NCBI RefSeq assembly: GCF_024372725.1 | Contig: NZ_VOUA01000033.1 | Location: 1 to 45,151, forward strand | Direction: 5' to 3' | Source: Methanosarcina sp. KYL-1 | GTDB taxonomy: Archaea > Halobacteriota > Methanosarcinia > Methanosarcinales > Methanosarcinaceae | Length of the DNA: 45,151 nucleotides | Part shown: piece after piece, positions 3,311 through 29,481 of the stretch | How the letters are laid out: every line of letters begins with the position of its first letter | How positions within the stretch are numbered: position 1 is the first letter of the stretch | Made by a program: the position numbers and the translations under genes | The notes under the pieces: generated by a model | What the model was told of the DNA's origin: nothing | Database searches by the model: none | The model's input: only the letters and a program-made list of their open reading frames with translations

Positions 3311-4333
3311 TTACTCCTCTGAATTCCCGGTTCCGGGCTGTTTCCTGTAACCTTCTCTGTCAGAGAGCCGCTTGATCAGCTCTCCTATCCTTTCCGAGTA
3401 CCACCCTTCCTGCACATACCGGGGGTAGATCGGCAGTCGTTCCCTGAGGGGGATGTCTCCTAACTTCGCCTGCAGGTCTTTTACGTCTGGCCATTCGGCC
3501 TCCGGATTGATCCAGTCAATGGTAAGAGGGGAGATGCCTCCCAGGTCAGTTACCCCTTTTGCGATAAGGGCTTTTGGCTCTATCAGGTTTGGGGCTACCT
3601 GCACGGCCACTTCAGGCGGCAGGATTTCCCTGGCAAGGGATACTGCATCCATCATCTCATCCACCGTGGGCTCGGGATGCTTTTCCATGGGCGTCCCGGG
3701 TTTGGGGGCAAAGTTCTGGATAATGACTTCCTGGATATGCCCGTACTTCCTGTGCAGGCCTGCGATTGCTTCAAGGGACTCGACCCTGTCCTCCCTGCTT
3801 TCTCCTATTCCCACAAGGATGCCCGTGGTATAGGGGATCTGCAGTTTTCCGGCTTCCCGGATCGTCTCAAGCCTGCTTTCGGGAAGCTTTCCCGGGCAGT
3901 CTTTATGGGCGTCCAGGGTTGCAGTGCTCTCGAGCATCAGCCCCATGCTGGCGTTTAATGGCTTTAAGGCTTCGAGTTCGGCCCGGGTCATGACCCCGGC
4001 ATTGGTGTGGGGCAGGATCCCGATTTCGATTGCAGCTTCACTGAGACAGATGAGGTATTCCAGGGTGGAGGAATACCCCAGCTCTCCGAGCCATTTCATG
4101 TATTCGGGTAGCTCTTCGGCGTATTCTCCGAAGGTGAAAAGAGCTTCCGTGCACCCGGCCTTCACTCCGTTTTCAAGGATAAGGATTATCTCTTCGGGTT
4201 TCATGAGCCGGGCTCCGGGCTGTCCTGGCTCCCGCCGAAAACCGCAGTAGCCGCAGCGGTTCCTGCAGACATTGGTTACGGGGATGAAAACGTTTTTTGA
4301 GTAAGTTACAAAAGGTGGTTTTTCCGGTGGAAT
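3311..4333 (-). CDS. cofG: CofG, Fo synthase subunit 1 (probable ATT start)
   Basis: Radical SAM partner of CofH in Fo synthesis. Translating upstream of the first ATG (4204) gives the essential cluster motif CRNRCGYCGFRR (about 4271-4236), so the gene must start earlier. The frame is closed by TAA about 30 nt before 4333 and has no ATG, GTG or TTG between that stop and the motif. ATT at 4333-4331 has AGGTG 7 nt upstream and gives a 340-residue protein starting (M)PPEKPPFVTYSKNVFIPVT, a normal length for CofG. Other family blocks are ILVGIGES, QNFAPKPGTPM and DLGGISPLT. A sequencing error destroying an ATG is the main alternative. It lies 93 bp after the oxidoreductase gene. Confidence 0.93.
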   Translation of the reverse strand: MPPEKPPFVTYSKNVFIPVTNVCRNRCGYCGFRREPGQPGARLMKPEEIILILENGVKAGCTEALFTFGEYAEELPEYMKWLGELGYSSTLEYLICLSEAAIEIGILPHTNAGVMTRAELEALKPLNASMGLMLESTATLDAHKDCPGKLPESRLETIREAGKLQIPYTTGILVGIGESREDRVESLEAIAGLHRKYGHIQEVIIQNFAPKPGTPMEKHPEPTVDEMMDAVSLAREILPPEVAVQVAPNLIEPKALIAKGVTDLGGISPLTIDWINPEAEWPDVKDLQAKLGDIPLRERLPIYPRYVQEGWYSERIGELIKRLSDREGYRKQPGTGNSEE

Positions 4334-16948: not shown

Positions 16949-17320
16949 ATGACAGATTGTGATCTTTGCGGACGCGCAATCCCGACCGTAAACCCGGTCA
17001 GGGTCCTGCGCCCTCTCCTCAAGTTCGCCTACCCCGAAGGAGTCTGGAAAGGCCTCTGCGAGACCTGCCTTGAATCCGCCGAGGAAACCCGCGTAAAAGT
17101 GGCAAAAGAGACCTCTGCAGGCAAAAAAGGCAAATGCGCCCTCTGCGGAGATAAAACCGACCTTTACGCCGTGGAAATGCATATCCCTGACTTCTCAAAA
17201 GAAGTCGTAAAAAAGAATGCAATGCTCTGTGAGAAATGCTTAAAGGCAGCCGGTGAGACTTACGTGAAGTTCAAGAGGGAACAGCACGGGGAACACGGGC
17301 ACGGGCACGGGCATCATTAA
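16949..17320 (+). CDS. fpoO: FpoO, F420H2 dehydrogenase accessory metal-binding subunit
   Basis: The last fpo gene; its 123-residue product is a small soluble protein special to the Methanosarcina-type complex and has no counterpart in bacterial complex I. Four CxxC pairs are visible (CDLC, CETC, CALC, CEKC), enough for two rubredoxin- or zinc-ribbon-like sites, and a histidine-rich tail GHGHGHH. FpoO has been described as a likely iron-sulfur protein; its role is not settled. It is the intact parent of three partial copies further downstream (18326-18691, 19944-20174, 28890-29189). Confidence 0.95.
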   Translation: MTDCDLCGRAIPTVNPVRVLRPLLKFAYPEGVWKGLCETCLESAEETRVKVAKETSAGKKGKCALCGDKTDLYAVEMHIPDFSKEVVKKNAMLCEKCLKAAGETYVKFKREQHGEHGHGHGHH

Positions 17321-17330
17321 GTGAGGTTGA

Positions 17331-17363
17331 AGCTGCTGTTATGGCGGCTTTTTTCTTCCTTTT
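17331..17363 (+). terminator. Terminator of the fpo operon
   Basis: AGCTGCT (17331-17337) pairs with GGCGGCT (17343-17349), allowing G-U pairs, followed by a T-rich run. Closely related hairpins follow each of the three degraded fpoO copies, which shows the copied segment included the terminator. Confidence 0.7.
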
Positions 17364-17385
17364 TTTTGATTATTGAAATCTCATT

Positions 17386-17811
17386 TTATTCTGCAAGTTT
17401 CTCTGCGTATTCTGCAGCGTAAAAGGCAAATGTATCAAAATCTTCCAGGTTTTCAGCTAGCAGTTTTCTTAATACGTCAGGGTCCAATTCTTCATATATA
17501 TGGACCAGAACATTTCTGAACCCTGCTGCAAAAGCGAATTCCTCTGCAAATTCTTTAGGGATTATTTTGTGCCTGCCAAGAATCCGAAAAACACTCCTAT
17601 AGTCTTCAGGCCTTTCAAACCCCTCTTTTGAGATGATGATTTCTCCGATGTCAATGGCACATTCAATTGCAAGCTGGAAATTTCTCTCGACTGCGGAACG
17701 TTTTTCATAATTGCTTTCGAGGTCCGTGCTGTCGGAATCTATTGATTTCAGGTAGTCCATACAGCGCTGCATGAAGTTTAACTTTCTAAAGATCTTATCT
17801 GCTGCTGACAT
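17386..17811 (-). CDS. hepT: HepT-family HEPN toxin
   Basis: A 141-residue all-helical protein of the HepT/DUF86 family, the RNase-like toxin of type VII HEPN-MNT systems. The signature R-x4-H-x-Y is present as RNVLVHIY near residue 98. The preceding gene is mntA, whose end it overlaps by 17 nt, the usual order and coupling for this pair. It is convergent with fpoO and its 3' end lies 66 bp from the fpoO stop. Pieces of a second hepT lie at 28703-28888 and 29351-29465. Confidence 0.9.
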   Translation of the reverse strand: MSAADKIFRKLNFMQRCMDYLKSIDSDSTDLESNYEKRSAVERNFQLAIECAIDIGEIIISKEGFERPEDYRSVFRILGRHKIIPKEFAEEFAFAAGFRNVLVHIYEELDPDVLRKLLAENLEDFDTFAFYAAEYAEKLAE

Positions 17812-18295
17812 TCGGAATACCTCTCTTCTCCCTTATTCGTTTCAGCAATTCCTTATTTAAAAAGTCTTCATGGTACTTTCTGTCCAGGTATCTGGACATT
17901 ACACGATGCTCCACGTCCAGTTTAAGGTCTTCGTTTCTGACTAATAACGGCACATTGGGCTTTATTACCTCAAAATTAATAACCGGTGAAGCATCATTCA
18001 TCACTACAAGGTCTACATGATCGGTTTTGAGGAAGGTTGCAAGCTCTCCCATTAATTCCAGGCGCTTTTCGATCCTCTCTCCTTTTGTAAGTTTGCCGGA
18101 AAGATACACAGCTATATCAATATCGCTTAACGGCCCTTCCGTGCCTTCGGCTGTCGAGCCGAAGAGATATGCAAGTTCAACATATTCCCGTGCCTTGAAA
18201 AATTCAGGGAGCACGGTACACAGAATCTCTTTCCCTCTCTTATGTGGTGTAGAGCCCATTGCATTCTTCTTTATGTCCTGTTCTTTCAAATACAT
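17795..18295 (-). CDS. mntA: MntA-family minimal nucleotidyltransferase antitoxin
   Basis: A 166-residue protein with the nucleotidyltransferase signature GS-x10-D-x-D, seen as FGSTAEGTEGPLSDIDIAV near residue 46, and a third acidic position in HVDLVVMN. In characterised pairs MntA neutralises HepT by adding AMP to the tyrosine of the R-x4-H-x-Y motif, which this HepT retains. ATG 18295 is chosen; a later ATG at residue 13 is possible. Its upstream region runs directly into the divergent fpoO copy, so promoter and copy share about 30 bp. Confidence 0.9.
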   Translation of the reverse strand: MYLKEQDIKKNAMGSTPHKRGKEILCTVLPEFFKAREYVELAYLFGSTAEGTEGPLSDIDIAVYLSGKLTKGERIEKRLELMGELATFLKTDHVDLVVMNDASPVINFEVIKPNVPLLVRNEDLKLDVEHRVMSRYLDRKYHEDFLNKELLKRIREKRGIPNVSSR

Positions 18296-18325
18296 TATGT
18301 TGCAGGTGTTGCAGGTAGGGTCATT

Positions 18326-18691
18326 GTGACATATTGTGATCTTTGCGGACGTGCAATCCCGACCGTAAACCCGGTCAGGGTCCTGCGCCCTCTCCTCAAG
18401 TTCGCCTACCCCGAAGGCGTCTGGGCAGGCCTCTGCGAGAACTGTCTCGAATCCGCCGACAAAACCCGCGTAAAAGTGGAAAAAGAGATCTTTACAGGCA
18501 CTTCCGACAAATGCGACCTCTGCGGCTCAAAAACCGACCTTTACGCTGCAGAAATGCACATCCCCGACTTCTCAAAAGAAATCGTAAAAAAGGATGCCAT
18601 GCTCTGAAAAAAATGCCTGGATGCAGCCGGTGAAACCTACGTGAAGTTCAAGAGGGAACAGCACGGGGAACACGGGCACTCGAAGCATTAA
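18326..18691 (+). pseudogene. fpoO: fpoO copy 2, full length with an in-frame TGA
   Basis: This copy begins GTG where fpoO has ATG and matches fpoO over its whole length, ending GHSKH-stop. A TGA at 18605-18607 replaces the TGT codon of the first cysteine of the fourth CxxC pair; beyond it the frame continues correctly as KKCLDAAGETYVKFKREQ to the normal stop. No other break is seen and the first three CxxC pairs are intact. Upstream there is no fpo-like AAGGAGGT site, so translation is doubtful. It is followed by a copy of the fpoO terminator. Confidence 0.85.
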
Positions 18692-18702
18692 AGTTGAGTT
18701 GG

Positions 18703-18738
18703 AGCTGCTTTTAAAGCGGCTTTTTTCTTATTTTTTTT
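18703..18738 (+). terminator. Terminator copy behind fpoO copy 2
   Basis: AGCTGCTT (18703-18710) pairs with AAGCGGCT (18714-18721), followed by a long T-rich run. It is homologous to the fpo terminator at 17331 and slightly longer in stem. Confidence 0.65.
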
Positions 18739-18799
18739 GGCGGGTGCTGGTAGCTTTATATCCCTCGCCAGTTTCTTTTTGACATAATTCCAAAGTTTC

Positions 18800-19840
18800 T
18801 TAAAACCATTTGTCAAGCTTTTGTTGGTTTTTTGCCTCAATTAAACGTGAATAATAGAAGTTGTCGACTTTTATCTTTTCTTTCGTTCTAACATTGCCTT
18901 GAAGGTCTAGATAAGTAATAACTTCCTCCGGTGTCATTTTATCTTTTGGAAAAAACGATATCTGGTATGTCCTATAGTAATTACTTTTGTAGTAATTTCC
19001 TATCATCTGTCCTTTTTGACTCTTTTTGCGATCCAAAAGTTTACGCAATGTTGGTTTGAAAAGTTCACAAACTTCTTTTTTTCTTGAATTATTTGACGAG
19101 TTATGGATAGTTGAAAAAGTTGCTCCAAGAATCAAGTCGATCAATTGAATAAATTGGGATTCATCTGACTTGCTTTCTCTATGGTCTGAGTCGATAAATT
19201 TTATTTCGTCACAGTTTATGCTCAACTTATCTATTGCGAATTCGGTTTGTTGAATTGGGTGCCAAGGGAAAAAATCATGGTATTCTTGACTTCCTCTGTC
19301 ATGAAATATAGAATTCACGACAATATTGGAGTAATCTTTAAAAAAATAGTTTAAACCGCTCATTAAAACAGTTCTATAAAATCGGTTATAGATGTTAAGT
19401 TCTATTTTTCCGCCACTACCAAATTCTCTGTAATCTATGTTTGAAAGATTTATTCCCAGAATATTAAAGTATAACATTTTTCGGTGCTTTTGACAAGCTT
19501 CCCTGTTGATAAAATTGATCCAATTTTTTGCTATCATGTATCTAGCACTTGATCTGTGAATTTCTTTGAAATGAATCTCAGTATCATTATCTTCATGAAA
19601 CTTACATCTATCAGGACAGCATGAATCTGAGACATTCCAATGGTGATTTTTTATGCACCGCAGATCTTTCAAGTTTGTCAAAACATCCTCTTTGCAATCT
19701 TTAGGGACAAAGAGAGCTCCGAGGTACATCCATTTTGTATTATCAAAAGGGTCTACGCTACTGAAAATTTCATCAGAATAAATCTCAAGTTCGATATTTC
19801 CGTTTAAGTACGTGGAAAATTTGCCTCCGTCACTTATCAA
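18800..19840 (-). CDS. DUF3800-like protein, putative nuclease
   Basis: A 346-residue soluble protein. Near the N-terminus EIYSDEIFSS resembles the D-E-S/G motif of DUF3800 proteins, and near residue 228 ESQFIQLIDLILGA matches their closing E-x-x-x-x-Q-x-x-D-L-I block. DUF3800 has been predicted to have an RNase H-like fold and often occurs in defence regions. A CCPDRC...H cluster near residue 75 may bind metal. The start is TTG 19840 because no ATG precedes the first motif. A TATA-like ATATAC (around 19870-19880) lies roughly 30 nt upstream, so the message may be leaderless. Composition is clearly more AT-rich than fpo, suggesting transfer. Confidence 0.6.
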   Translation of the reverse strand: MISDGGKFSTYLNGNIELEIYSDEIFSSVDPFDNTKWMYLGALFVPKDCKEDVLTNLKDLRCIKNHHWNVSDSCCPDRCKFHEDNDTEIHFKEIHRSSARYMIAKNWINFINREACQKHRKMLYFNILGINLSNIDYREFGSGGKIELNIYNRFYRTVLMSGLNYFFKDYSNIVVNSIFHDRGSQEYHDFFPWHPIQQTEFAIDKLSINCDEIKFIDSDHRESKSDESQFIQLIDLILGATFSTIHNSSNNSRKKEVCELFKPTLRKLLDRKKSQKGQMIGNYYKSNYYRTYQISFFPKDKMTPEEVITYLDLQGNVRTKEKIKVDNFYYSRLIEAKNQQKLDKWF

Positions 19841-19943
19841 GTTTAATTTTTTTGCTTTGTATTTCTTACAGTATATTGAGCAGTTATTAATCTTTCTTTA
19901 TGTTGTGAGGTTTGGACATATTTGAGGTCTGTTCCAAATTTAT

Positions 19944-20174
19944 GTGACGATCTATGTAAAAGTGGAAAAAGAAGAACTTGCAGGCACCCCCGGCAAATGC
20001 ACCCTCTGCGGCACAAAAACCGACCTCTACGCCGTGGAAATGCACATCCCCAACTTCTCAAAAGGTGTCATGACTGAAAACGCAATGCTCTGCGAGAAGT
20101 GTTTAAAGGCAGCCGGTGAAAGCTACGTCAAGTTTAAAAGAGAACAGGCGGAGCACGGGCACGGGCATCATTAA
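19944..20174 (+). pseudogene. fpoO: fpoO copy 3, C-terminal part only
   Basis: Homology starts at 19956 (codon for V in TRVKVEKE of the full protein) and runs to the stop, keeping CTLC, CEKC and HGHGHH. The frame is open from a GTG at 19944, whose first codons are unrelated sequence, and no ribosome site is evident. The N-terminal half with two CxxC pairs is missing, so a working FpoO is unlikely. It is about 91% identical (20 differences in 219 positions, hand count) to the same part of copy 4 at 28971-29189, with no length difference. Confidence 0.8.
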
Positions 20175-20184
20175 GTGGATTTGA

Positions 20185-20215
20185 AGCTGCTGTTAAGGCG
20201 GCTTTTTTCTTTTTT
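20185..20215 (+). terminator. Terminator copy behind fpoO copy 3
   Basis: AGCTGCT (20185-20191) pairs with GGCGGCT ending at 20203, then a run rich in T. It is homologous to the fpo terminator. Confidence 0.6.
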
Positions 20216-20754
20216 TTGTTTTTTGATGGGTGCTTTTATCCTGAAGGTTCCTATTGGTTCGCTTTTAATTTCATTTTCTCGACTGCTTTGATTTATTATC
20301 AACATCAAAAGCATTTTCATCTTTTTATATTTCTATATTTTATACTCTTTCTCTAAAAAACGAAACATTTATCTATTCTTATTCTATACAACAGTATAAA
20401 ATATTTTATTTATTATATACACATTTTATATATGTACACTGTTGGTATGTTCCGGAAAAGAGGAAGACATAGAGGGGGATTAGAAAGGAAATTTTGACTA
20501 CATGGGATGCCTCCGTTTGGTGGGGTATATAGAGATGAATGATTTTTTTCATGATGAAACCAGCCAAGAAGTTTCATCGAGTCATGGGTTTGATGGCAGC
20601 AGTTAAAAAATGTGAGGATGAAGATTTGAAGGTCTGAGTGATTAGAGATTGAAATTGTTTGTCTAATTTTTCATAAAATAATCTGGAAGGGCTTCTGATA
20701 AAGTACTGAGTTATGTTCTGTATTTTTGATCTTTGAAAATAGGGGTGATATTTG
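20216..20754. other. Intergenic region before the RHS gene with a trace of hepT
   Basis: The first 80 bp resemble the DNA after fpoO copy 4 (GTGCTTTT, GAAGGT, CTATTGGTT, TTCTCGACTGC). The last motif corresponds to the AVEK codons of hepT on the minus strand. From 20340 to 20450 the DNA is very AT-rich with TATA-like TTTATATATG near 20425. A 28-codon frame at 20551-20637 has no ribosome site and no known match. GGGGTGAT precedes the RHS start. Confidence 0.5.
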
Positions 20755-23700
20755 ATGAAAACAAATCGGAAAATAATTTGTTTACCTTTACTTGTTGTTT
20801 TTCTGACGATGATTACAGGGACGGCAATAGCTGATGACGTTAACGTGGAATTAGTTAGTCACCTTGACGGAGAGGTTTACGATGTGGAGGTAGTTGGGGA
20901 TTATGCATATATTGGAACGGGGCAGGAACTTGTTATATTTGACATCAGTGACGCATTCAATCCATCAGAAGTGGGGAGGGTGCTTACACCATCGATAGTA
21001 TTTGGTGTTGCTGTGGCAGGCAGCTATGCCTATGTAGTCTCTAGTGGTCTTGTTATTGTGGATGTCACAAACCCAGCAGCACCAACCCTTGCAGGCAGTT
21101 ATGATACTGTTGATACTGTTGGTCATGGTGTTGCTGTGGCAGGCAGCTATGCCTATGTAACCTCTAGTAGCAATGGTCTTGTTATTGTGGATGTCACCAC
21201 CCCATCCGCACCAACCCTTGCAGGCAGTTATTATACTCGTTGTCCACTTTGTGTCGCTGTTGCAGGCAATTATGCCTACGTAGCCGATTGGGACAATGGT
21301 CTTGTTATTGTGGATGTCACCACCCCATCCGCACCAACCCTTACAGGTAGTTATGATACTGCTGGTTATGCAGAGGGTGTTGCTGTGGCAGGCAATTATG
21401 CCTACATAGCCTCTGGTAGCAATGGTCTTGTTATTGTGGATGTCACCACCCCATCCGCACCAACCCTTGCAGGCAGTTATGATACTGCTGGTTATGCACG
21501 TGGTGTTGCGGTGGCAGGAAATTATGCATACGTAGCCGATTCTTACAATGGTCTTGTCATTGTGGATGTCACAGATCCAGCAGCACCAACTATCGCAGGC
21601 AGTTATGATACTGCTGGTTATGCAGAGGGTGTTGCTGTGGCAGGCAATTATGCCTATGTAGCCGATAATACCAATGGTCTTGTGATTTTGCGAACTGATA
21701 TCCAAGATCAGGGACCAACTGATGAATCTTTAGTCCAGGTAGAAGGCAGTCCCGAAGTCTACTGGTTCCAGAATAACAAACTTTACTGGGTGACCGATTG
21801 GGAAATAATCAACCAGATGGCAGGTGTGTCGGGCTGGGACAGCGTGAACACCCTGCCAGCCGGTGACTTTGATCCTGCGGATTATTCACAGGGTCCACGT
21901 TTTATCAGTACGGAATCGATTTCTGATGGGCTGCTTATCAGGGAACTGGGTGATTACAAAGTTTATTTGATTGAAAACGGGAAGAAACGCCATATTACAT
22001 CTCCTGAAGCTCTTGAATGGAACGGATACAGTTTTGATGATGTCATAGATGTATCTCCATCAATTATCGGAATGTTCTCATCAGGGAGTGAAATCAGCAA
22101 CGATAAAACCCTGCTTCAAAGAGAAGGACTTCCCGATATCTACTGGCTTCAGAACAACAAACTATACTGGGTCACAGACTGGGACGTGATCAATAAGATG
22201 TCAGATGTCCCCGGTTGGGATCACGTGAACACTCTACCATCAAGCATGTTCAACCCGGAGGATTATGAGCAAGGACCCAGGTTTATTAGTACAGGAATAG
22301 AGTCGGATGGTTTGTTAATCCAAGAACAGGGATACCCTGAGGTATATCTTATTCTTGGTGGTGAAAAGCATCACTTTACTTCTCCTGAGGCATTCTTGGA
22401 GAGTGGATACAGCTTTGATGATGTGATAAGTGTATCAACAGAAATACTTGCAACATTTAAATCTGGAAGTGATGTAAGCAAATCTTCTTCTGTTCATAAT
22501 ATCGATAAAGGCACTGACTACACTTCAATACAAGCTGCTATTAATGATGCAAGTTCAGGTGATGAAATACATGTGGATAGTGGCACATATGTTGAATATG
22601 TTAGAATAGATAAGAGCTTAATATTAAAAGGTGATAGCGCGGATACAGTAAAAGTAGTGTCACCTTCAGGCTATTCTGTTTTTGGTGTTGCAACTAATGA
22701 TGGACGAGTCACAATTAGTGGATTCACAGTAACAGGAGCAGATTTTGATGGTACTGGCCCTGCTGCAGGAATTAAATGTTCTTCTTCAGATTGCATAATA
22801 TCAGACAATATCCTTTATAACAATAATTGTGGAATTCAATGCCTTGTAGAGTGGGGTTCTCAAGGAACATTAACCATAATTAATAACACATTTGATTCAA
22901 ATAGACTTGGCACATATATACATAAATCAAATGTGTTATTAATTGGTAATAAAGCCGTATCAAACGAATGGGGTCTACATGTAGGTGGTAAAGACAATGT
23001 TATAAAAGACAACATTGCAAACTCTAATAGCATTGGTTTATTTATCGGACAAAATTCAATGAATAATACTTTAATAAATAATACTGCAAATTCAAATGCT
23101 GATTATGGCTTCCAAATTCAAAGCTCCTCCTATATTGAACTTATTAACAATACCGCAGATTCCAACGGAGGATGTGGGATCTACTTACAATTTTTTGCGA
23201 ATGGTACATACCACAATCTTCTGTATCATAATAATCTAATTAACAATGGTTATAATCTAATTACCAATAATTATACTAACGCTATAGATGCAAATATTTT
23301 TGATTCCACCGGTTATACATGGAACACGTGGGATAATGATTACCCATCAGGTGGCAATTACTGGAGCGATTACACTGGTTCTGATAATTTCAAAGGTCCA
23401 AATCAAGATCAACCTGGCAGTGATGGCATCGGTGATACCCCCTACCCGATCCCGGGCGGCAGCAGTGTGGATAGATATCCGCTGATGGCACCATATTCTT
23501 CAACCCCGCCTTCATCATCTATGCAAGATAAATCTCTTCTCCAGGTGCAAGGCAGTCCAGATGTCTACTGGTTCCAGAACAACAAACTTTACTGGGTGAC
23601 CGATTGGGATATAATCAACCAGATGTCAGGTGTGCCGGGCTGGGACAGTGTGAACACCCTGCCAGCCAGTGACTTTGACCCAGCGGATTATTCACAGGGT

Positions 23701-26700
23701 CCACGTTTCATCAGTACGGAATCGATTTCTGATGGGCTGCTTATCAGGGAAGTGGGAGATTACAAAGTTTATTTGATTGAAAATGGGAAGAAACGTCACT
23801 TTACATCTCCTGAAGCTCTCGAATGGAATGGATTCAGTTTTGATGATGTCATAGACGTTTCTTCGTCGATAATAAACATGTTTCCAGAGGGAAACGAGAT
23901 AAATATTAATGAACCAATTTTTGAGATCATTAAACCAGGTGCCTTTTTAGAAGGAACTTTTGATCAATACAATTACGGTTCGTACCCCATGATTATGGAA
24001 GTTACAGATGTAGATGGACTGGAATTTAGTGGAATACTTTACTGGCCAGATCTTGGGGATAGTAAAACTAAGTTTACAGGTACAATTGATCCAAACTTAA
24101 ATCAAGCTTGGTTTACGGAATACGAACAAATACAGGGGTCATCTTCCATAGTTCTTAATGGGGATTATTATGCGGAACTAAAAGGTGATACTCTCAGCGG
24201 GTACTGGAACTGGCCAAATGGTGGAGAAGGGGGTACTTTTTGGATATCTCCTTCTTCTGGTAACATAGATGAAGATAACGAAGCTATAAGTGCTACTTAT
24301 GGCGGTCCTTCAGAATCAAACAGTCTTCATTCCGATGATCCGATAAACATGGGAACTGGTAGTTACTTCTACAATCACCAAGACATCTACATCCCCGGGC
24401 AGGGTCTACCTTTGGCAATTACACGTTCATATAATTCCATGGATGATTATAACGGGCCACTAGGTCATGGCTGGACATTCAATTACAATATGAATTTGAT
24501 CGTTTCAGCTACTGGTGATGTAACGGTCATGAGAGAAAGTGGCAGAAGGGACAGGTATACACTGAATACAGACGGGACCTATTCCGCACCACTGGGTGTC
24601 TTTGATACTTTAACCAAAAACCCGGATGGAACCTATATTTTAACAGGAAAGGACAGGACACGGTATAACTTTGGCCCAGATGGAAAACTTACCAGTATAA
24701 TAGACAAAAACGATAACCAAGTAAGTTTAACGTATACTGGAGACTATCTGACAGAAGTTACCGATGCTTCTGGCCGGGAGCTGATTCTGGCCTATGATAC
24801 AGAGGGTCACATCATTTCGATCACCGATCCGATAGGCAGGGTATGGAGCTATTCATATGATAGCCAGGGTAATCTGATCGAATGTCTGAATCCCATGGGC
24901 GGTCAATTCAGTTACACATATGATGAAAATAACTGGATGACATCAATAACCGATCCTCTTGGAAATCAGATCATGGCAAATACCTATGATGATGAAGGAC
25001 GCGTGATCAGTCAGAGCAATGCCCTTGGATCGGTCTATACTTTCGATTATGATACAGAGAACCAAAGGACTACTGAAACTGATCCCTTTGGCAATACTAA
25101 GGTCTATGCATACGATGAACACTTCTGGGGACTGAGTGAAACCGACCAGCTCGGGAACACAGTAACTTATGCCTATGACGAAGATGGTAATAGGATCAGT
25201 GTGACCAATGAGAATGGCCAGACCAGCACATTTGCATATGATGAAAATGGTGATGTTATCGGCATCACTGATCCGCTGGGTTATACTACATCCATGGCAT
25301 ATGATTCAGAAGACAATCTGATAAGTCTTACAGATGCACTGGGTCGGCAGATGTCCCTGGAGTATAATAGCAATAATGACCTTAGCAAAATAATCAATGC
25401 TCTGGGTTATGAGTTTGTTTTTACTTATGATCTGCACGGACAGCTTATAAGCAGCACGGATGCCAACGGTAACACTGCAACCTTTGCCTATAACGCCAAC
25501 GGAGACAAAATTAGTGTTGTTGATGCCCTGGGTAACACTGCATCTCTAACTTATGACATGATAGGCCGGGTTACCAGCATAACCGATGCCAATGGCAACA
25601 CATACACATTACAATACGATGTCCTTGACAGGGTCATAAGCGTTACCGACCCACTTGGAAATACTGCAACCAGTACATATGATGCGGCTGGAAATATGAT
25701 TTGTCTTACCGATGCTTCAGGAAGCGCAACAACGTATTCCTATGACCCCTTATACAATTTGCTTGAGGTAACGAACGCCGTAGGTGATTCTGTTAGCTTT
25801 ACATATGATGCCGTTGGCAACATGATCGCAGTTACAGATGCAAAGGATCAGACCACAAACATCAACTACGATCCCCTGAATCGCCCCGTTTCTGTTACCG
25901 ACCCATTGGGTTATATTTCAACAGTTGAATATGATGCCGTTGGTAACGGTATCAGCTTTACGGATGCTGCCGGAAGCGTGACAACATACTCTTATGACCT
26001 GCTTAATAGGTTGATCGAGGTTACGGATGCAATGGGTGGATCAGTGATCTATGAGTATGATGTTGTGGGCAATATGGTTTCTATGACAGATGCAAACGGG
26101 CATACCACGAGTTACGCCTATGATTCATTGGATCGTCCTGTCTCTGCAACCGATCCGTTGGGATACACTACGAGTAACACCTATGATGCCGTTGGCAACA
26201 TGGTCAGCCTCACCGATGCAAATGGTGAGACAACAACTTACAGTTACGATGCTGTTGATCGTCTGGTGCAGATCTCCTATCCGGATGGTCAAAATGTGAT
26301 ATATGGCCATGATGGCCTGGGTAACCGCCTCACCATGCAGGATAGCCATGGAGTAACGAACTATGAGTATGACAGCCTGAACCGCTTGCTCAGTGTCCTC
26401 GATTCCGACTCAGAACAGGTGAGCTACACCTATGACGAATCCGGTAACCGTGCTGAAATTACATATCCTGATGGAAAGGTTGCCTCTTACATATATGACG
26501 ATATAAACAGGCTCATTGGCGTGACTGGTCGGGATGGTTTGATCACAGGCTATGCATATGATACAAACGGTAACCTGATAAATATGACCTATCCAAACGG
26601 TATGTCCACAGACTATGTTTATGATGCAAATGACAGACTCGTCAGGCTTATCAATAAAAATGAAACCCAGGTAGTCTCGAGTTTTGAGTACACTCTGGAT

Positions 26701-28185
26701 CCCGTAGGCAATCGTTTGAGCGTTGATGAGCTGTTTTCAGGAAGGTTCGAGGCAGAGGATCCGGTTTGTGACGAAGCACAGGTTCTCACTACTACCTATG
26801 AGTATGATGGTCTCTACCGCCTGACCGAGGTCAACTATCCTTTCGATAAGACTGTGCAGTATAACTATGATCCTATGGGTAATCGTATCAGTATGATAAC
26901 AACAGTCGATGGAATAGACACTACTGTGGATTACTCATATGATGTTGCTGACCGCCTGTTGAGTTCCGGTAGCATTGCATATACATATGACAACAACGGA
27001 AATCTGATCGAGAAGATGGAAAATCCGGGACAGGTTACACTCTACACCTATGATGCAGCAAACCACTTAACAGGCATATCTGCAGTCATAAATAGCAAGA
27101 AATCCCCTAAAGACCTGTACAATTTCGAGTATGATGGTGACGGAAATCGTATCATCAAGACCGAAATTCATGGAAATAACCTGCGTTCAACAGAGTATGT
27201 ATGGGATGTCAACAGTTTCCTGCCACAAGTGCTTGCTGAATCTGATAAGAAGGATTCAACCTATTACACTTATGGGCTGGACCTCATTTCCATGACAGAT
27301 CCTCAAAGAGGGGAATTCTACTATCAATATGATGGACTTGGAAGTGTACGTAGCCTGAGTGATAGCCAACAAAGTGTTAAAACTATTTACTTCTATGATG
27401 CTTTCGGACAAATACAGAAGGAAATGGGTCATGTTGATAATGAATTCCTGTTCACCGGAGAACAAATGGATGACGAGACTGGATTGATGTATCTCAGAGC
27501 AAGGTATTATGATCCCGAGATTGGTAGATTTATCAACAAGGATCCGTTTGAAGGTTTTATGTCAAACACTCAGAGTCTGAACAGGTATTCTTATGTTCAG
27601 AATAATCCGGTTAACTATGTTGATCCTACAGGCTTATGTTCAGAGGATGGTAACACGGTAAAAAGTGTAGATGAAATTTTCTGGACAAAAAGATATGTAG
27701 ATCCGGCGATGTCTTTTTTTACAGATCCTTTTGTTATTAATAGAGTCACATATTTAGGAGCAGCAACGAGGAACCAGGGTACAAGTCTCAATAGTATATG
27801 GCCATACATTGAATCAAGAAAATCTCTTAAAGGAACTACGAATACGGCTGAAAATATCATGATGGGAGTAACTGTGGCTACAGAATTATCTGAAAGTTTC
27901 CACAGCCATGGTCTCACTCTTTCAGATATACCAACATCTAAAGAAGAAATTGTTGATATTTGGGAACATTCGAGTGATATAGATAAGTTAGATGCTGCAT
28001 ATACTACTGTATCAATTATACGGGATACAGCTGTGAATTCTGGTTTCGAGTTTACTCACGTAAATGATGTGACTAGATTTGTGGATCCGGAGTGGGAATA
28101 CTCAATAGACACAATGACAGTTCGTTATGAAGAGGCGCAAATGGTATATCGTTATTTTAGAGATGACTATGAATGGCCGTGGTAA
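20755..28185 (+). CDS. Giant secreted RHS/YD-repeat protein with variable C-terminal domain
   Basis: A 2476-residue protein. Approximate layout: signal peptide 1-27; LVIVD-type beta-propeller repeats (GVAVAGNYAYVADxxNGLV) 38-316; a module with WFQNNKLYWVTDW and VYLIENGKKRH at 323-447, a divergent copy at 448-580 and a third at 923-1045; a NosD-like parallel beta-helix 582-910; an unrecognised beta-rich stretch 1056-1190; the RHS entry segment (INMGTGSYFY, RSYNSMD) 1193-1262; a long series of YD repeats 1300-2165; the RHS core (LFTGEQMDDETGLMYLRARY, then YDPEIGRFINKDP) 2185-2295; and a 180-residue C-terminal domain I do not recognise. This is the layout of polymorphic toxins and cell-surface adhesins. 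TTG 20752 is an alternative start. It is bracketed by fpoO copies 3 and 4. No clear immunity gene follows. Confidence 0.9.
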   Translation: MKTNRKIICLPLLVVFLTMITGTAIADDVNVELVSHLDGEVYDVEVVGDYAYIGTGQELVIFDISDAFNPSEVGRVLTPSIVFGVAVAGSYAYVVSSGLVIVDVTNPAAPTLAGSYDTVDTVGHGVAVAGSYAYVTSSSNGLVIVDVTTPSAPTLAGSYYTRCPLCVAVAGNYAYVADWDNGLVIVDVTTPSAPTLTGSYDTAGYAEGVAVAGNYAYIASGSNGLVIVDVTTPSAPTLAGSYDTAGYARGVAVAGNYAYVADSYNGLVIVDVTDPAAPTIAGSYDTAGYAEGVAVAGNYAYVADNTNGLVILRTDIQDQGPTDESLVQVEGSPEVYWFQNNKLYWVTDWEIINQMAGVSGWDSVNTLPAGDFDPADYSQGPRFISTESISDGLLIRELGDYKVYLIENGKKRHITSPEALEWNGYSFDDVIDVSPSIIGMFSSGSEISNDKTLLQREGLPDIYWLQNNKLYWVTDWDVINKMSDVPGWDHVNTLPSSMFNPEDYEQGPRFISTGIESDGLLIQEQGYPEVYLILGGEKHHFTSPEAFLESGYSFDDVISVSTEILATFKSGSDVSKSSSVHNIDKGTDYTSIQAAINDASSGDEIHVDSGTYVEYVRIDKSLILKGDSADTVKVVSPSGYSVFGVATNDGRVTISGFTVTGADFDGTGPAAGIKCSSSDCIISDNILYNNNCGIQCLVEWGSQGTLTIINNTFDSNRLGTYIHKSNVLLIGNKAVSNEWGLHVGGKDNVIKDNIANSNSIGLFIGQNSMNNTLINNTANSNADYGFQIQSSSYIELINNTADSNGGCGIYLQFFANGTYHNLLYHNNLINNGYNLITNNYTNAIDANIFDSTGYTWNTWDNDYPSGGNYWSDYTGSDNFKGPNQDQPGSDGIGDTPYPIPGGSSVDRYPLMAPYSSTPPSSSMQDKSLLQVQGSPDVYWFQNNKLYWVTDWDIINQMSGVPGWDSVNTLPASDFDPADYSQGPRFISTESISDGLLIREVGDYKVYLIENGKKRHFTSPEALEWNGFSFDDVIDVSSSIINMFPEGNEININEPIFEIIKPGAFLEGTFDQYNYGSYPMIMEVTDVDGLEFSGILYWPDLGDSKTKFTGTIDPNLNQAWFTEYEQIQGSSSIVLNGDYYAELKGDTLSGYWNWPNGGEGGTFWISPSSGNIDEDNEAISATYGGPSESNSLHSDDPINMGTGSYFYNHQDIYIPGQGLPLAITRSYNSMDDYNGPLGHGWTFNYNMNLIVSATGDVTVMRESGRRDRYTLNTDGTYSAPLGVFDTLTKNPDGTYILTGKDRTRYNFGPDGKLTSIIDKNDNQVSLTYTGDYLTEVTDASGRELILAYDTEGHIISITDPIGRVWSYSYDSQGNLIECLNPMGGQFSYTYDENNWMTSITDPLGNQIMANTYDDEGRVISQSNALGSVYTFDYDTENQRTTETDPFGNTKVYAYDEHFWGLSETDQLGNTVTYAYDEDGNRISVTNENGQTSTFAYDENGDVIGITDPLGYTTSMAYDSEDNLISLTDALGRQMSLEYNSNNDLSKIINALGYEFVFTYDLHGQLISSTDANGNTATFAYNANGDKISVVDALGNTASLTYDMIGRVTSITDANGNTYTLQYDVLDRVISVTDPLGNTATSTYDAAGNMICLTDASGSATTYSYDPLYNLLEVTNAVGDSVSFTYDAVGNMIAVTDAKDQTTNINYDPLNRPVSVTDPLGYISTVEYDAVGNGISFTDAAGSVTTYSYDLLNRLIEVTDAMGGSVIYEYDVVGNMVSMTDANGHTTSYAYDSLDRPVSATDPLGYTTSNTYDAVGNMVSLTDANGETTTYSYDAVDRLVQISYPDGQNVIYGHDGLGNRLTMQDSHGVTNYEYDSLNRLLSVLDSDSEQVSYTYDESGNRAEITYPDGKVASYIYDDINRLIGVTGRDGLITGYAYDTNGNLINMTYPNGMSTDYVYDANDRLVRLINKNETQVVSSFEYTLDPVGNRLSVDELFSGRFEAEDPVCDEAQVLTTTYEYDGLYRLTEVNYPFDKTVQYNYDPMGNRISMITTVDGIDTTVDYSYDVADRLLSSGSIAYTYDNNGNLIEKMENPGQVTLYTYDAANHLTGISAVINSKKSPKDLYNFEYDGDGNRIIKTEIHGNNLRSTEYVWDVNSFLPQVLAESDKKDSTYYTYGLDLISMTDPQRGEFYYQYDGLGSVRSLSDSQQSVKTIYFYDAFGQIQKEMGHVDNEFLFTGEQMDDETGLMYLRARYYDPEIGRFINKDPFEGFMSNTQSLNRYSYVQNNPVNYVDPTGLCSEDGNTVKSVDEIFWTKRYVDPAMSFFTDPFVINRVTYLGAATRNQGTSLNSIWPYIESRKSLKGTTNTAENIMMGVTVATELSESFHSHGLTLSDIPTSKEEIVDIWEHSSDIDKLDAAYTTVSIIRDTAVNSGFEFTHVNDVTRFVDPEWEYSIDTMTVRYEEAQMVYRYFRDDYEWPW
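21722..23880. repeat. Long internal repeat of the RHS gene (two near-identical 360-bp units)
   Basis: The DNA at 21722-22085 and 23521-23880 encodes the same 120-residue module with very few changes, while the middle copy (about 22098-22490) has diverged. The outer pair therefore looks recently duplicated or homogenised across the NosD-like domain. Confidence 0.75.
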
Positions 28186-28260
28186 TATTGTTCAAAAATA
28201 TGGATTTAAATTGAGTATTTGTAGAACTGAAATAATCTCTGATGAAAAGTGTGGGGTTCC

Positions 28261-28490
28261 TTACCTCAAACTTTTCTCTATTTTTAACCTTTTCTCAATA
28301 TCCTTGTCAAAGATAAACTGGGATATCCGGTATTTCTCATTGAACTTGTCGATGTTCTCGAAAGCCTTCTCTACAACCTTCTCATCAGTCAATTCCTTTA
28401 GGAACTCACCGCTCTGGCTGATCTGACCTACTTTCGGCAGGTGGCTTGCATATTCTGAATCATTTTTCCCGATGCCGTTTTTCGCCTTGT
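28261..28490 (-). pseudogene. C-terminal remnant of an unidentified gene
   Basis: On the minus strand, after an in-frame TGA near 28495, about 75 codons read as a well-formed charged helical peptide (SEYASHLPKVGQISQSGEF, later FNEKYRISQFIFDKDIEKRL) ending in TAA at 28263-28261. No start codon is seen, so this is probably the 3' piece of a lost gene. I do not recognise the family. It lies convergent with the RHS gene, 75 bp past its stop. Confidence 0.4.
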
Positions 28491-28702
28491 TTCAGAAATT
28501 ACATCCAATATATGTAGATTCCATACACATGCTCTTACTTATATATGGACCGAGATTTCAAGTATATGTAAACGTTATCAAATGATTTCAGTTAGAGATT
28601 GTTAATTCAAAAACGGCATCAAAAGAAATGTCTAAATTATTATGTCGACCGGCCGAATATAAGATTTTTGAAGAATTGGAAGATAAATTGTAAAAGTAAT
28701 TT

Positions 28703-28888
28703 TCATTCAGTTTCTTTCTTCTCAACATACTCCAGCACATACCCCGCAAATTCCTCAAAATCCCCAAGTTTCTCGGTCAGGAATTCTTCCAGAACCCCGG
28801 GGTCCACTTCGTCATACATGTGGACGAGTATATTCCTGAACCCTGCGGCAGGTGCGAATTTTTCTGCAAAATCCTTCGGGGAGATCCC
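28703..28888 (-). pseudogene. hepT: hepT copy 2, C-terminal piece
   Basis: About 61 codons from ISPKDFAEKFAPAAGFRNILV to the TGA at 28705-28703 match the C-terminal part of the intact HepT (IIPKEFAEEFAFAAGFRNVLV), including the R-x4-H-x-Y motif as RNILVHMY. Upstream of this point the hepT sequence is replaced by fpoO copy 4. The N-terminal piece lies beyond that copy at 29351-29465. Confidence 0.8.
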
Positions 28889-28889
28889 T

Positions 28890-29189
28890 CCCCTCCTCAA
28901 ATTCGTCTATCCCGAAGGAGTCTGGACAGGCCTCTGCGAGACCTGCCTCGAATCCGCCGACAAAACCCGCGTAAAAGTGGAAAAAGAAGAACTTGAAGGC
29001 ACCCCCGGCAAATGCGACCTCTGCGGCTCAAAAACCGACCTCTACCCCGTAGAGCTCCGCATCCCCAACTTCTCAAAAGGCGTTGTGACTGAAAACGCCA
29101 TGCTCTGTGAGAAGTGTTTGAAGGCAGCCGGTGAAACCTACGTCAAGTTCAAAAGAGAACAGGCGGAACACGGGCACGGGCATCATTAG
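28890..29189 (+). pseudogene. fpoO: fpoO copy 4, lacking the first 21 codons
   Basis: Homology begins at PLLKFVYPEGVW (residue 22 of FpoO) and runs to the end, with CETC, CDLC, CEKC and HGHGHH kept and a TAG stop. A continuous frame reaches back through antisense hepT to 28599, but that portion is not protein-like. The fpoO start region and first CxxC are missing. The junction with hepT lies in a CCCTC-rich stretch near 28886-28896, so short shared sequence may have guided the join. Confidence 0.82.
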
Positions 29190-29203
29190 GTGTATTTGAA
29201 GCT

Positions 29204-29265
29204 GCTGCTTTTTAAAGCGGCTTTTTCTTTTTTTCTTTGGCATGAAAGTACCGGAGTACTTTCAT
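29204..29265 (+). terminator. Terminator copy behind fpoO copy 4 plus a second hairpin
   Basis: GCTGCTTT (29204-29211) pairs with AAAGCGGC (29214-29221), then a T-rich run, as after the other fpoO copies. A second perfect hairpin, ATGAAAGTAC-CGGA-GTACTTTCAT (29242-29265), followed by TTTTTT, lies in roughly 60 bp that the matching region after copy 3 lacks. A similar hairpin occurs at 44670-44694. Confidence 0.6.
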
Positions 29266-29350
29266 TTTTTGTGCCTGTAATTCAAAAATTTCATGTACGT
29301 TTTTTTGGCAGGTGCTTTTTGAAGGTGCCTGTTGGTTAATTTATATCTCT

Positions 29351-29465
29351 TTTTCTCGACTGCACTTCTTCTTTCGTAGTCGTATTCCAGATTTAAGGTT
29401 TCGGGGTTCAGGGACTTGAGGTAATGCATACACCTTTTCATGGGACTTAATTTTCTGAGAATCAT
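29351..29465 (-). pseudogene. hepT: hepT copy 2, N-terminal piece
   Basis: From ATG 29465 the frame reads MILRKLSPMKRCMHYLKSLN and on through NLEYDYERRSAVEK, matching the first 43 or so residues of the intact HepT (FRKLNFMQRCMDYLKSIDS). Homology ends near 29351. About 40 codons of the hepT middle are missing and fpoO copy 4 stands in their place. The gene cannot make a working toxin. Confidence 0.78.
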
Positions 29466-29481
29466 TTCTTAACTTTTCATT

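What the first reader, a model, noticed from the sequence alone, without database searches (positions are those of the whole stretch)
20755..28185. Archaeal RHS giant with an unfamiliar domain order and tip
LVIVD propeller, three copies of an unknown module, a NosD-like beta-helix, then RHS shell and a 180-residue C-terminal domain (starting near TGLCSEDG) that I cannot place. RHS proteins of bacteria release toxins from a YD-repeat cocoon. The large N-terminal adhesin-like part and the signal peptide suggest a surface weapon or adhesin of a methanogen. Composition is AT-rich compared with fpo.
Basis: partly seen in the sequence, partly recalled or inferred. Interest (0 to 1): 0.65.

Follow-up and report, generated by a model that had tools for sequence, protein, structure and literature searches.

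The report
Methanogen surface RHS protein, interchangeable tip
A methane-making archaeon carries a very large secreted protein whose sticky front part is joined to a toxin-cage (RHS) body ending in a tip found nowhere else we could search; relatives keep the cage but change the tip, or keep the front and swap the whole body, which looks like an archaeal version of bacterial contact weapons, although no protective (immunity) gene sits beside it and toxicity is untested.

Summary
Window 20755-28185 (+) is one intact 2476-residue ORF: Sec-type signal, LVIVD propeller, modules M1 and M2, NosD-like beta-helix, M3, a linker, DUF6531, about 23 RHS repeats, Rhs core, and a 182-residue tip. The module is predicted with high confidence and resembles EccB and endolysin-type wall-binding repeats.

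The tip meets the classic test of a polymorphic effector. Two relatives share 64-72% of the shell end and three others also match it, yet identity collapses to background exactly after DPTGL, and no relative of the tip was found. Heads are exchanged too. The window shares its head with a metallopeptidase-like giant in an M. acetivorans-sized genome, and the second Methanosarcina RHS giant shares its head with a PKD/LGFP giant. All four start 0.46-0.59 kb after an fpoO copy. Extra fpoO fragments, partly of foreign ancestry, mark a recombination hotspot here.

Against a simple toxin: no immunity gene lies downstream (only phage-head and hepT relics), there is no cassette array, the tip model is unusable (pLDDT 41), and toxicity is untested. 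Best reading: a WapA-like, Sec-exported RHS effector carrier; a new variant of a known kind.

The parts
20755..28185 (+). Whole ORF, 2476 aa: LVIVD / EccB-like modules / NosD / RHS giant with variable tip
20755..20838 (+). Probable Sec signal peptide (MKTNRKIICLPLLVVFLTMITGTAIA-DD)
   Evidence: Read from the sequence; no predictor run
20839..21708 (+). LVIVD beta-propeller head, residues 29-318; 60% identical (head plus half module, 359 aa) to the head of the metallopeptidase-like giant of G075
21721..22104 (+). Module 1 (EccB/endolysin-type repeat pair)
22105..22488 (+). Module 2
22489..23499 (+). NosD-like right-handed beta-helix
23527..23913 (+). Module 3, 92% DNA identity to module 1; AF2 model pLDDT 90.9
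23914..24324 (+). Linker domain, residues 1054-1190, unassigned
24337..24558 (+). DUF6531 with DPINMGTG, like the N-terminal Rhs cleavage motif (D1195)
   Evidence: motif compared with PMC8636562
24559..27393 (+). RHS/YD repeat shell
27394..27636 (+). Rhs-associated core; D2263 (KDPFEG) and D2290 (DPTGL), the putative aspartyl autoprotease and cleavage point
27637..28182 (+). C-terminal tip, residues 2295-2476, no detectable relatives, GC3 0.27
28264..28479 (-). Remnant of the C-terminus of a phage Mu F-like head protein; not an immunity gene
28706..28936 (-). C-terminal part of a disrupted hepT
28884..29183 (+). fpoO fragment copy 4, of g5-type ancestry, sitting between the two hepT parts
29352..29480 (-). 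N-terminal part of the same disrupted hepT
19956..20168 (+). fpoO fragment copy 3, of g5-type ancestry, 0.58 kb upstream of the giant
18800..19840 (-). DUF3800-like protein, 92% identical to one in the G007 hotspot
18326..18682 (+). fpoO copy 2, with an in-frame TGA
17386..18295 (-). HepT (17386-17811) and MntA (17795-18295) toxin-antitoxin pair
16949..17320 (+). Intact fpoO, end of the fpo operon and left edge of the hotspot

Best explanation
A Sec-exported, WapA-like RHS effector carrier of a Methanosarcina-type methanogen. The propeller, the EccB/endolysin-like modules and the beta-helix form a long surface-binding head and stalk (inferred). DUF6531, the YD repeats and the core form the closed RHS shell (RHS identity shown by homology, closure inferred). 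Two conserved aspartate motifs, DPINMGTG at the N-terminal plug and KDP...DPTGL at the C-terminal plug, would cut the shell and free the last 182 residues inside it (inferred from bacterial Rhs). The freed tip acts on a neighbouring cell (inferred). Tips are replaced exactly at the cleavage point by recombination, and whole bodies are exchanged behind shared heads at an fpoO-linked hotspot (shown by comparison). The lack of an immunity gene suggests a target the producer does not have, an unlinked immunity factor, or a tip that is no longer active.
For: Complete RHS anatomy. Shell end 64-72% identical to two relatives, then a fall to background at residues 2295-2300 in five comparisons; tip-against-tip scores are no better than shuffled sequence for the window, G079 and G002. 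The tip has AT-rich third positions, as usual for a recently acquired cassette (0.27 against 0.44 for the repeats). Both cleavage-like motifs are present, and D2263 and D2290 are invariant in the three closest shells. Relatives of the shell in three other archaeal genomes (G329, G378, G270) keep one tip type with a membrane-protein gene immediately downstream, conserved to a similar degree as the tip (tip 86/37/37%, neighbour 89/49/48%), and G329 has a truncated shell-end duplicate with the same tip, like bacterial Rhs orphans. Methanosarcina genomes hold a second, classical RHS toxin clade with orphan arrays (PMC3482391). The module folds like EccB repeats, which resemble the wall-binding PlyCB.
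Against: No same-strand gene follows the tip in the window, in G079 or in G002, whereas known Rhs/WapA toxins have adjacent immunity genes. No orphan tips elsewhere in the genome. The tip matches no toxin family and its fold could not be predicted. The same heads carry non-RHS bodies, so the protein family as a whole could be adhesive or degradative. Delivery into another cell is unproven.
Confidence: 0.55

Rival explanations
1. A structural adhesin. The RHS shell is used as a rigid stalk, as in teneurin-like YD proteins, and the variable tip is only a small cap that drifts or serves antigenic variation; nothing is released.
For: Adhesin-like head and helix; no immunity gene in three of three members of this clade; same heads on PKD/LGFP bodies.
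Against: A drifting cap would not break exactly at the cleavage motif while the last 75 residues of the shell stay 48-92% identical. The cleavage motifs are kept.
Confidence: 0.25
2. A decayed or freshly replaced RHS toxin: the shell is intact, but the tip-immunity pair was scrambled by recombination at the hotspot, leaving an inactive or out-of-context tip.
For: The 700 bp after the stop are relics: a phage Mu F-like fragment, a split hepT and an fpoO fragment. The tip is unique among all genomes searched.
Against: The tip ORF is open over 182 codons and ends in a normal TAA; G079 and G002 also lack a neighbour but have quite different open tips.
Confidence: 0.15
3. A sub-case of the best explanation: the effector has a target that archaea lack (for example bacterial peptidoglycan or a bacterial receptor), so no immunity gene is needed, as for the archaeal peptidoglycan hydrolases described in PMC12352652.
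For: Absence of immunity genes with three different tips; the module fold is shared with bacterial wall-binding repeats.
Against: No hydrolase family is found in the tip; the target is unknown. EccB wall binding is itself only suggested.
Confidence: 0.2

Closest known systems
WapA-type RHS polymorphic toxins of Gram-positive bacteria
   Same: Sec signal, surface-binding N-terminus, RHS shell, variable C-terminus after a cleavage motif (PMC12704120)
   Different: Different head (LVIVD, EccB-like modules, NosD helix), archaeal host, no adjacent immunity gene, no orphan array
RHS polymorphic toxins of Methanosarcina acetivorans (Zhang et al. 2012, PMC3482391)
   Same: Archaeal, RHS repeats, exchangeable tips
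   Different: A distinct shell clade, only 33-37% identical, with a shared pre-toxin segment and orphan cassettes; the window protein has neither
RHS proteins of other Halobacteriota (G329, G378, G270)
   Same: Shell end 58-59% identical, break at the same point
   Different: Different, shorter heads; one shared glycine-rich tip type with a linked membrane-protein gene
LVIVD-headed giants of G075 and G007 near fpoO
   Same: Signal, propeller head, half module, upstream DNA and position after an fpoO copy
   Different: Body is LGFP plus metallopeptidase-like plus PKD, or LGFP plus PKD, instead of RHS
EccB repeats of ESX secretion systems / PlyCB of phage endolysin
   Same: Fold of the 128-aa module (Foldseek E 1.3e-4, probability 1.00)
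   Different: No sequence similarity detected in the PDB; binding not tested; TM-scores are low (about 0.36), perhaps because only part of the repeat pair superposes

Membership tests
RHS / YD-repeat shell proteins | Tandem YD repeats plus Rhs-associated core | tested here: met
   PF05593 23 stretches, TIGR01643 17 stretches, TIGR03696 E 2e-26
RHS / YD-repeat shell proteins | Closed hollow shell enclosing the C-terminus | not tested
   Shell not modelled; the two structure jobs went to the tip and the module
RHS polymorphic toxins | Aspartyl autocleavage motifs at both plugs | tested here: met
   DPINMGTG at 1195 and KDP(2263)...DPTGL(2290) present, motifs as in PMC8636562; cleavage itself not tested
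RHS polymorphic toxins | Conserved shell with hypervariable tip and a sharp junction | tested here: met
RHS polymorphic toxins | Tip is a toxin domain | tested here: inconclusive
   No family or structure relative; model pLDDT 41
RHS polymorphic toxins | Adjacent cognate immunity gene | tested here: not met
   Only relics and small ORFs without credible relatives in 700 bp downstream
RHS polymorphic toxins | Orphan tip/immunity cassettes | tested here: not met
   Single RHS locus in the genome
WapA | Sec signal peptide and envelope-binding N-terminal part | tested here: inconclusive
   Signal by eye; module fold like EccB/endolysin repeats; no predictor or binding test
WapA | Contact-dependent killing | not testable with these tools
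   Needs culture work
EccB/PlyCB-like repeats (module) | Repeat of a small beta sheet with helices as in EccB R1-R4 | tested here: met
   AF2 model pLDDT 90.9, Foldseek matches to EccB5, EccB1 and EccB3

The most novel reading that the evidence does not exclude
In Methanosarcina the DNA from the 3' end of fpoO through promoter, signal peptide and LVIVD head acts as a portable docking unit to which whole bodies (RHS cage with tip, metallopeptidase-like, PKD/LGFP) are joined by recombination, and the RHS member carries an immunity-free effector aimed at non-archaeal neighbours: an archaeal counterpart of polymorphic toxins diversified at two levels, body and tip.
Probability: 0.22. Interest if true: 0.72.

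Novelty: new variant of a known kind. Interest (0 to 1): 0.5.

Why it matters
Weapons of archaea are poorly known, and most described archaeal toxins follow bacterial designs. This protein joins an RHS cage to heads otherwise seen on ordinary methanogen surface proteins, with tips that change at the cleavage point and no immunity gene. If active, it would show how methanogens in mixed communities attack or bind neighbours, and genetically tractable Methanosarcina would make that testable. The fpoO hotspot gives a place to look for more such genes in any Methanosarcina genome.

Tried and rejected
Tip relatives: pattern scans of 85,000 genomes and of viral contigs, tblastn in plasmids and phages, 112 family and 393 phylum genomes, Pfam, PADLOC, PHROGs, PDB: nothing. 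The one weak hit (G051, E 0.007) is antisense to another gene and full of stops: chance. Tip structure from a single sequence: pLDDT 41, not used for fold search. The 43-aa ORF after the stop as an immunity gene: it is the end of a phage Mu F-like protein. The 99-aa ORF overlapping the stop: no relative beyond a weak PHROG match, and its second half is antisense to the phage relic, so not accepted. DUF3800 as partner: also occurs in hotspots without RHS. Pyrrolysine read-through of the stop: the stop is TAA. The idea of a tip conserved as a structural element: not supported. Makarova et al. 2019 on archaeal polymorphic toxins is not held in the library, so overlap with its lists could not be checked. 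One search was an invalid query.

Full report
1. The ORF. The window holds one open frame from ATG 20755 to TAA 28185, 2476 residues. Pfam and NCBIfam give LVIVD repeats, a NosD-like beta-helix, DUF6531, RHS repeats and the Rhs-associated core, all with strong scores. A 128-residue module occurs three times, at 21721-22104, 22105-22488 and 23527-23913, the first and third 92% identical in DNA. Segments differ in third-position GC (tip 0.27, helix 0.25, head 0.31, modules 0.40-0.47, repeats 0.44, fpo genes 0.61-0.74), which fits assembly from parts.

2. The unknown module. It has no Pfam or PDB sequence relative. With nine rows AlphaFold2 gave a confident model (pLDDT 90.9). Foldseek finds EccB of ESX secretion systems (best E 1.3e-4, probability 1.00) and, among viral proteins, several phage proteins including, with weaker scores, a CHAP protein, amidases and lysins. 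TM-scores are modest (about 0.35-0.45), as expected if only part of the repeat pair superposes. EccB1 repeats were reported to resemble PlyCB, a wall-binding endolysin subunit (PMC4769845). An envelope- or glycan-binding role is thus plausible, not shown.

3. The tip. The last 182 residues have no detectable relative in 112 genomes of the family, in 393 genomes of the phylum, where matches to the shell stop at or near the junction, in pattern scans of genome and viral collections, in plasmids and phages, nor in Pfam, PADLOC, PHROGs or PDB. The pattern scans find close relatives only. The single-sequence model is unusable (pLDDT 41, mostly helix).

4. Shell against tip. The closest shells are in G079 (a Methanosarcina) and G002 (another genus of the family; Methanosarcinaceae MAG JAFGQV010000143.1), 64 and 72% identical over the last 246 shell residues. 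Three further relatives, G329, G378 and G270, are 58-59% identical. In all five the identity in 25-residue bins stays at 48-92% between residues 2226 and 2300 and then drops to 4-28%. Tip-to-tip alignment scores among the window, G079 and G002 do not exceed shuffles. The break lies at DPTGL, the cleavage motif of bacterial Rhs proteins (PMC8636562); the N-terminal motif DPINMGTG is present as well. This is the signature of tip replacement and argues against a structural tip under common descent.

5. Immunity. The 700 bp after the stop contain the end of a phage Mu F-like head protein in antisense (28264-28479) and a hepT split by an fpoO fragment. No same-strand gene of credible size follows the tip in the window, G079 or G002. 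In contrast G329, G378 and G270 share one tip type and a membrane-protein gene directly downstream with similar degrees of conservation, and G329 has an orphan-like duplicate. A classical RHS toxin clade with orphan arrays exists in G075 and other Methanosarcina, in line with Zhang et al. 2012. Two defining features of polymorphic toxins, immunity gene and cassette array, are therefore not met here, and the protein is filed as an RHS protein that works like an effector carrier, not as a proven toxin system.

6. Heads are exchanged too. The head of the window protein is 60% identical (359 aa) to that of a giant in G075, a genome with the size I remember for M. acetivorans C2A (5.75 Mb), whose body is LGFP repeats, a metallopeptidase-like domain (Pfam below its cut-off; an HEIGHQ motif is seen in the sequence) and PKD. 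The head of the G079 RHS protein is 70.5% identical (628 aa) to that of a PKD/LGFP giant in G007. All four genes start 0.46-0.59 kb after an fpoO copy or fragment, and their upstream DNA aligns at 68-80% in three of the pairs compared. So the same head is found on different bodies, and the same body on different heads.

7. The locus. The stretch after fpoO is a hotspot in Methanosarcina. Several genomes of this genus and of sister genus g5 carry two to four fpoO copies or fragments with cargo between them: HepT/MntA pairs, DUF3800, beta-helix and PKD surface proteins. Other genera of the family have one copy; G074's two matches are adjacent pieces of one gene. In a DNA tree the window's copies 3 and 4 group at 100/100 with fpoO of g5 genomes rather than with the window's own fpoO; the DUF3800 protein is 92% and the HepT/MntA pair about 90% identical to g5 proteins. 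Extra fpoO fragments therefore look like foreign flanks carried in with cargo. One g5 contig has a tyrosine recombinase near its fpoO fragment, but whether an integrase or plain homologous recombination moves the cargo is open.

8. Verdict. Most likely this is a Sec-exported, WapA-like RHS effector carrier with an envelope-binding head (0.55). Shown: anatomy, homology of the shell, module fold (predicted), tip replacement, head/body exchange, hotspot. Inferred: export, closed shell, cleavage, release, effect on neighbours. RHS toxins of archaea are known; the head, the two-level exchange and the missing immunity make this a new variant of a known kind.

Noticed in passing
window 16949-29236: Four copies or fragments of fpoO with cargo between them; copies 3 and 4 are of g5-type (foreign) ancestry. 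Extra fpoO copies recur in several Methanosarcina genomes: a recombination hotspot after the fpo operon.
   Followed up: partly
window 28706-29480: A hepT gene (-) is split by an fpoO fragment (+): codons 66-142 lie left of it, codons 1-43 right of it.
   Followed up: partly
window 28264-28479: Relic of a phage Mu F-like head protein directly after the RHS gene, 79% identical to intact ~296-aa proteins in other Methanosarcinaceae.
   Followed up: partly
window 17386-18295: Intact HepT/MntA toxin-antitoxin pair between fpoO copies 1 and 2; the same pair sits in the fpoO hotspot of many Methanosarcina genomes.
   Followed up: partly
L139, L140, L141: RHS proteins of three other archaeal genomes share a glycine-rich tip and a co-conserved downstream membrane protein: a candidate new toxin-immunity pair.
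   Followed up: partly
L097:500-1669 and 3656-3885: A tyrosine recombinase gene lies about 2 kb upstream of an fpoO fragment on this contig: possible mover of the hotspot cargo.
   Followed up: no
window 18800-19840: DUF3800-like 346-aa protein with a weak PADLOC PDC-M04A match, shared with fpoO hotspots of G007 (92%) and G085 (80%).
   Followed up: partly
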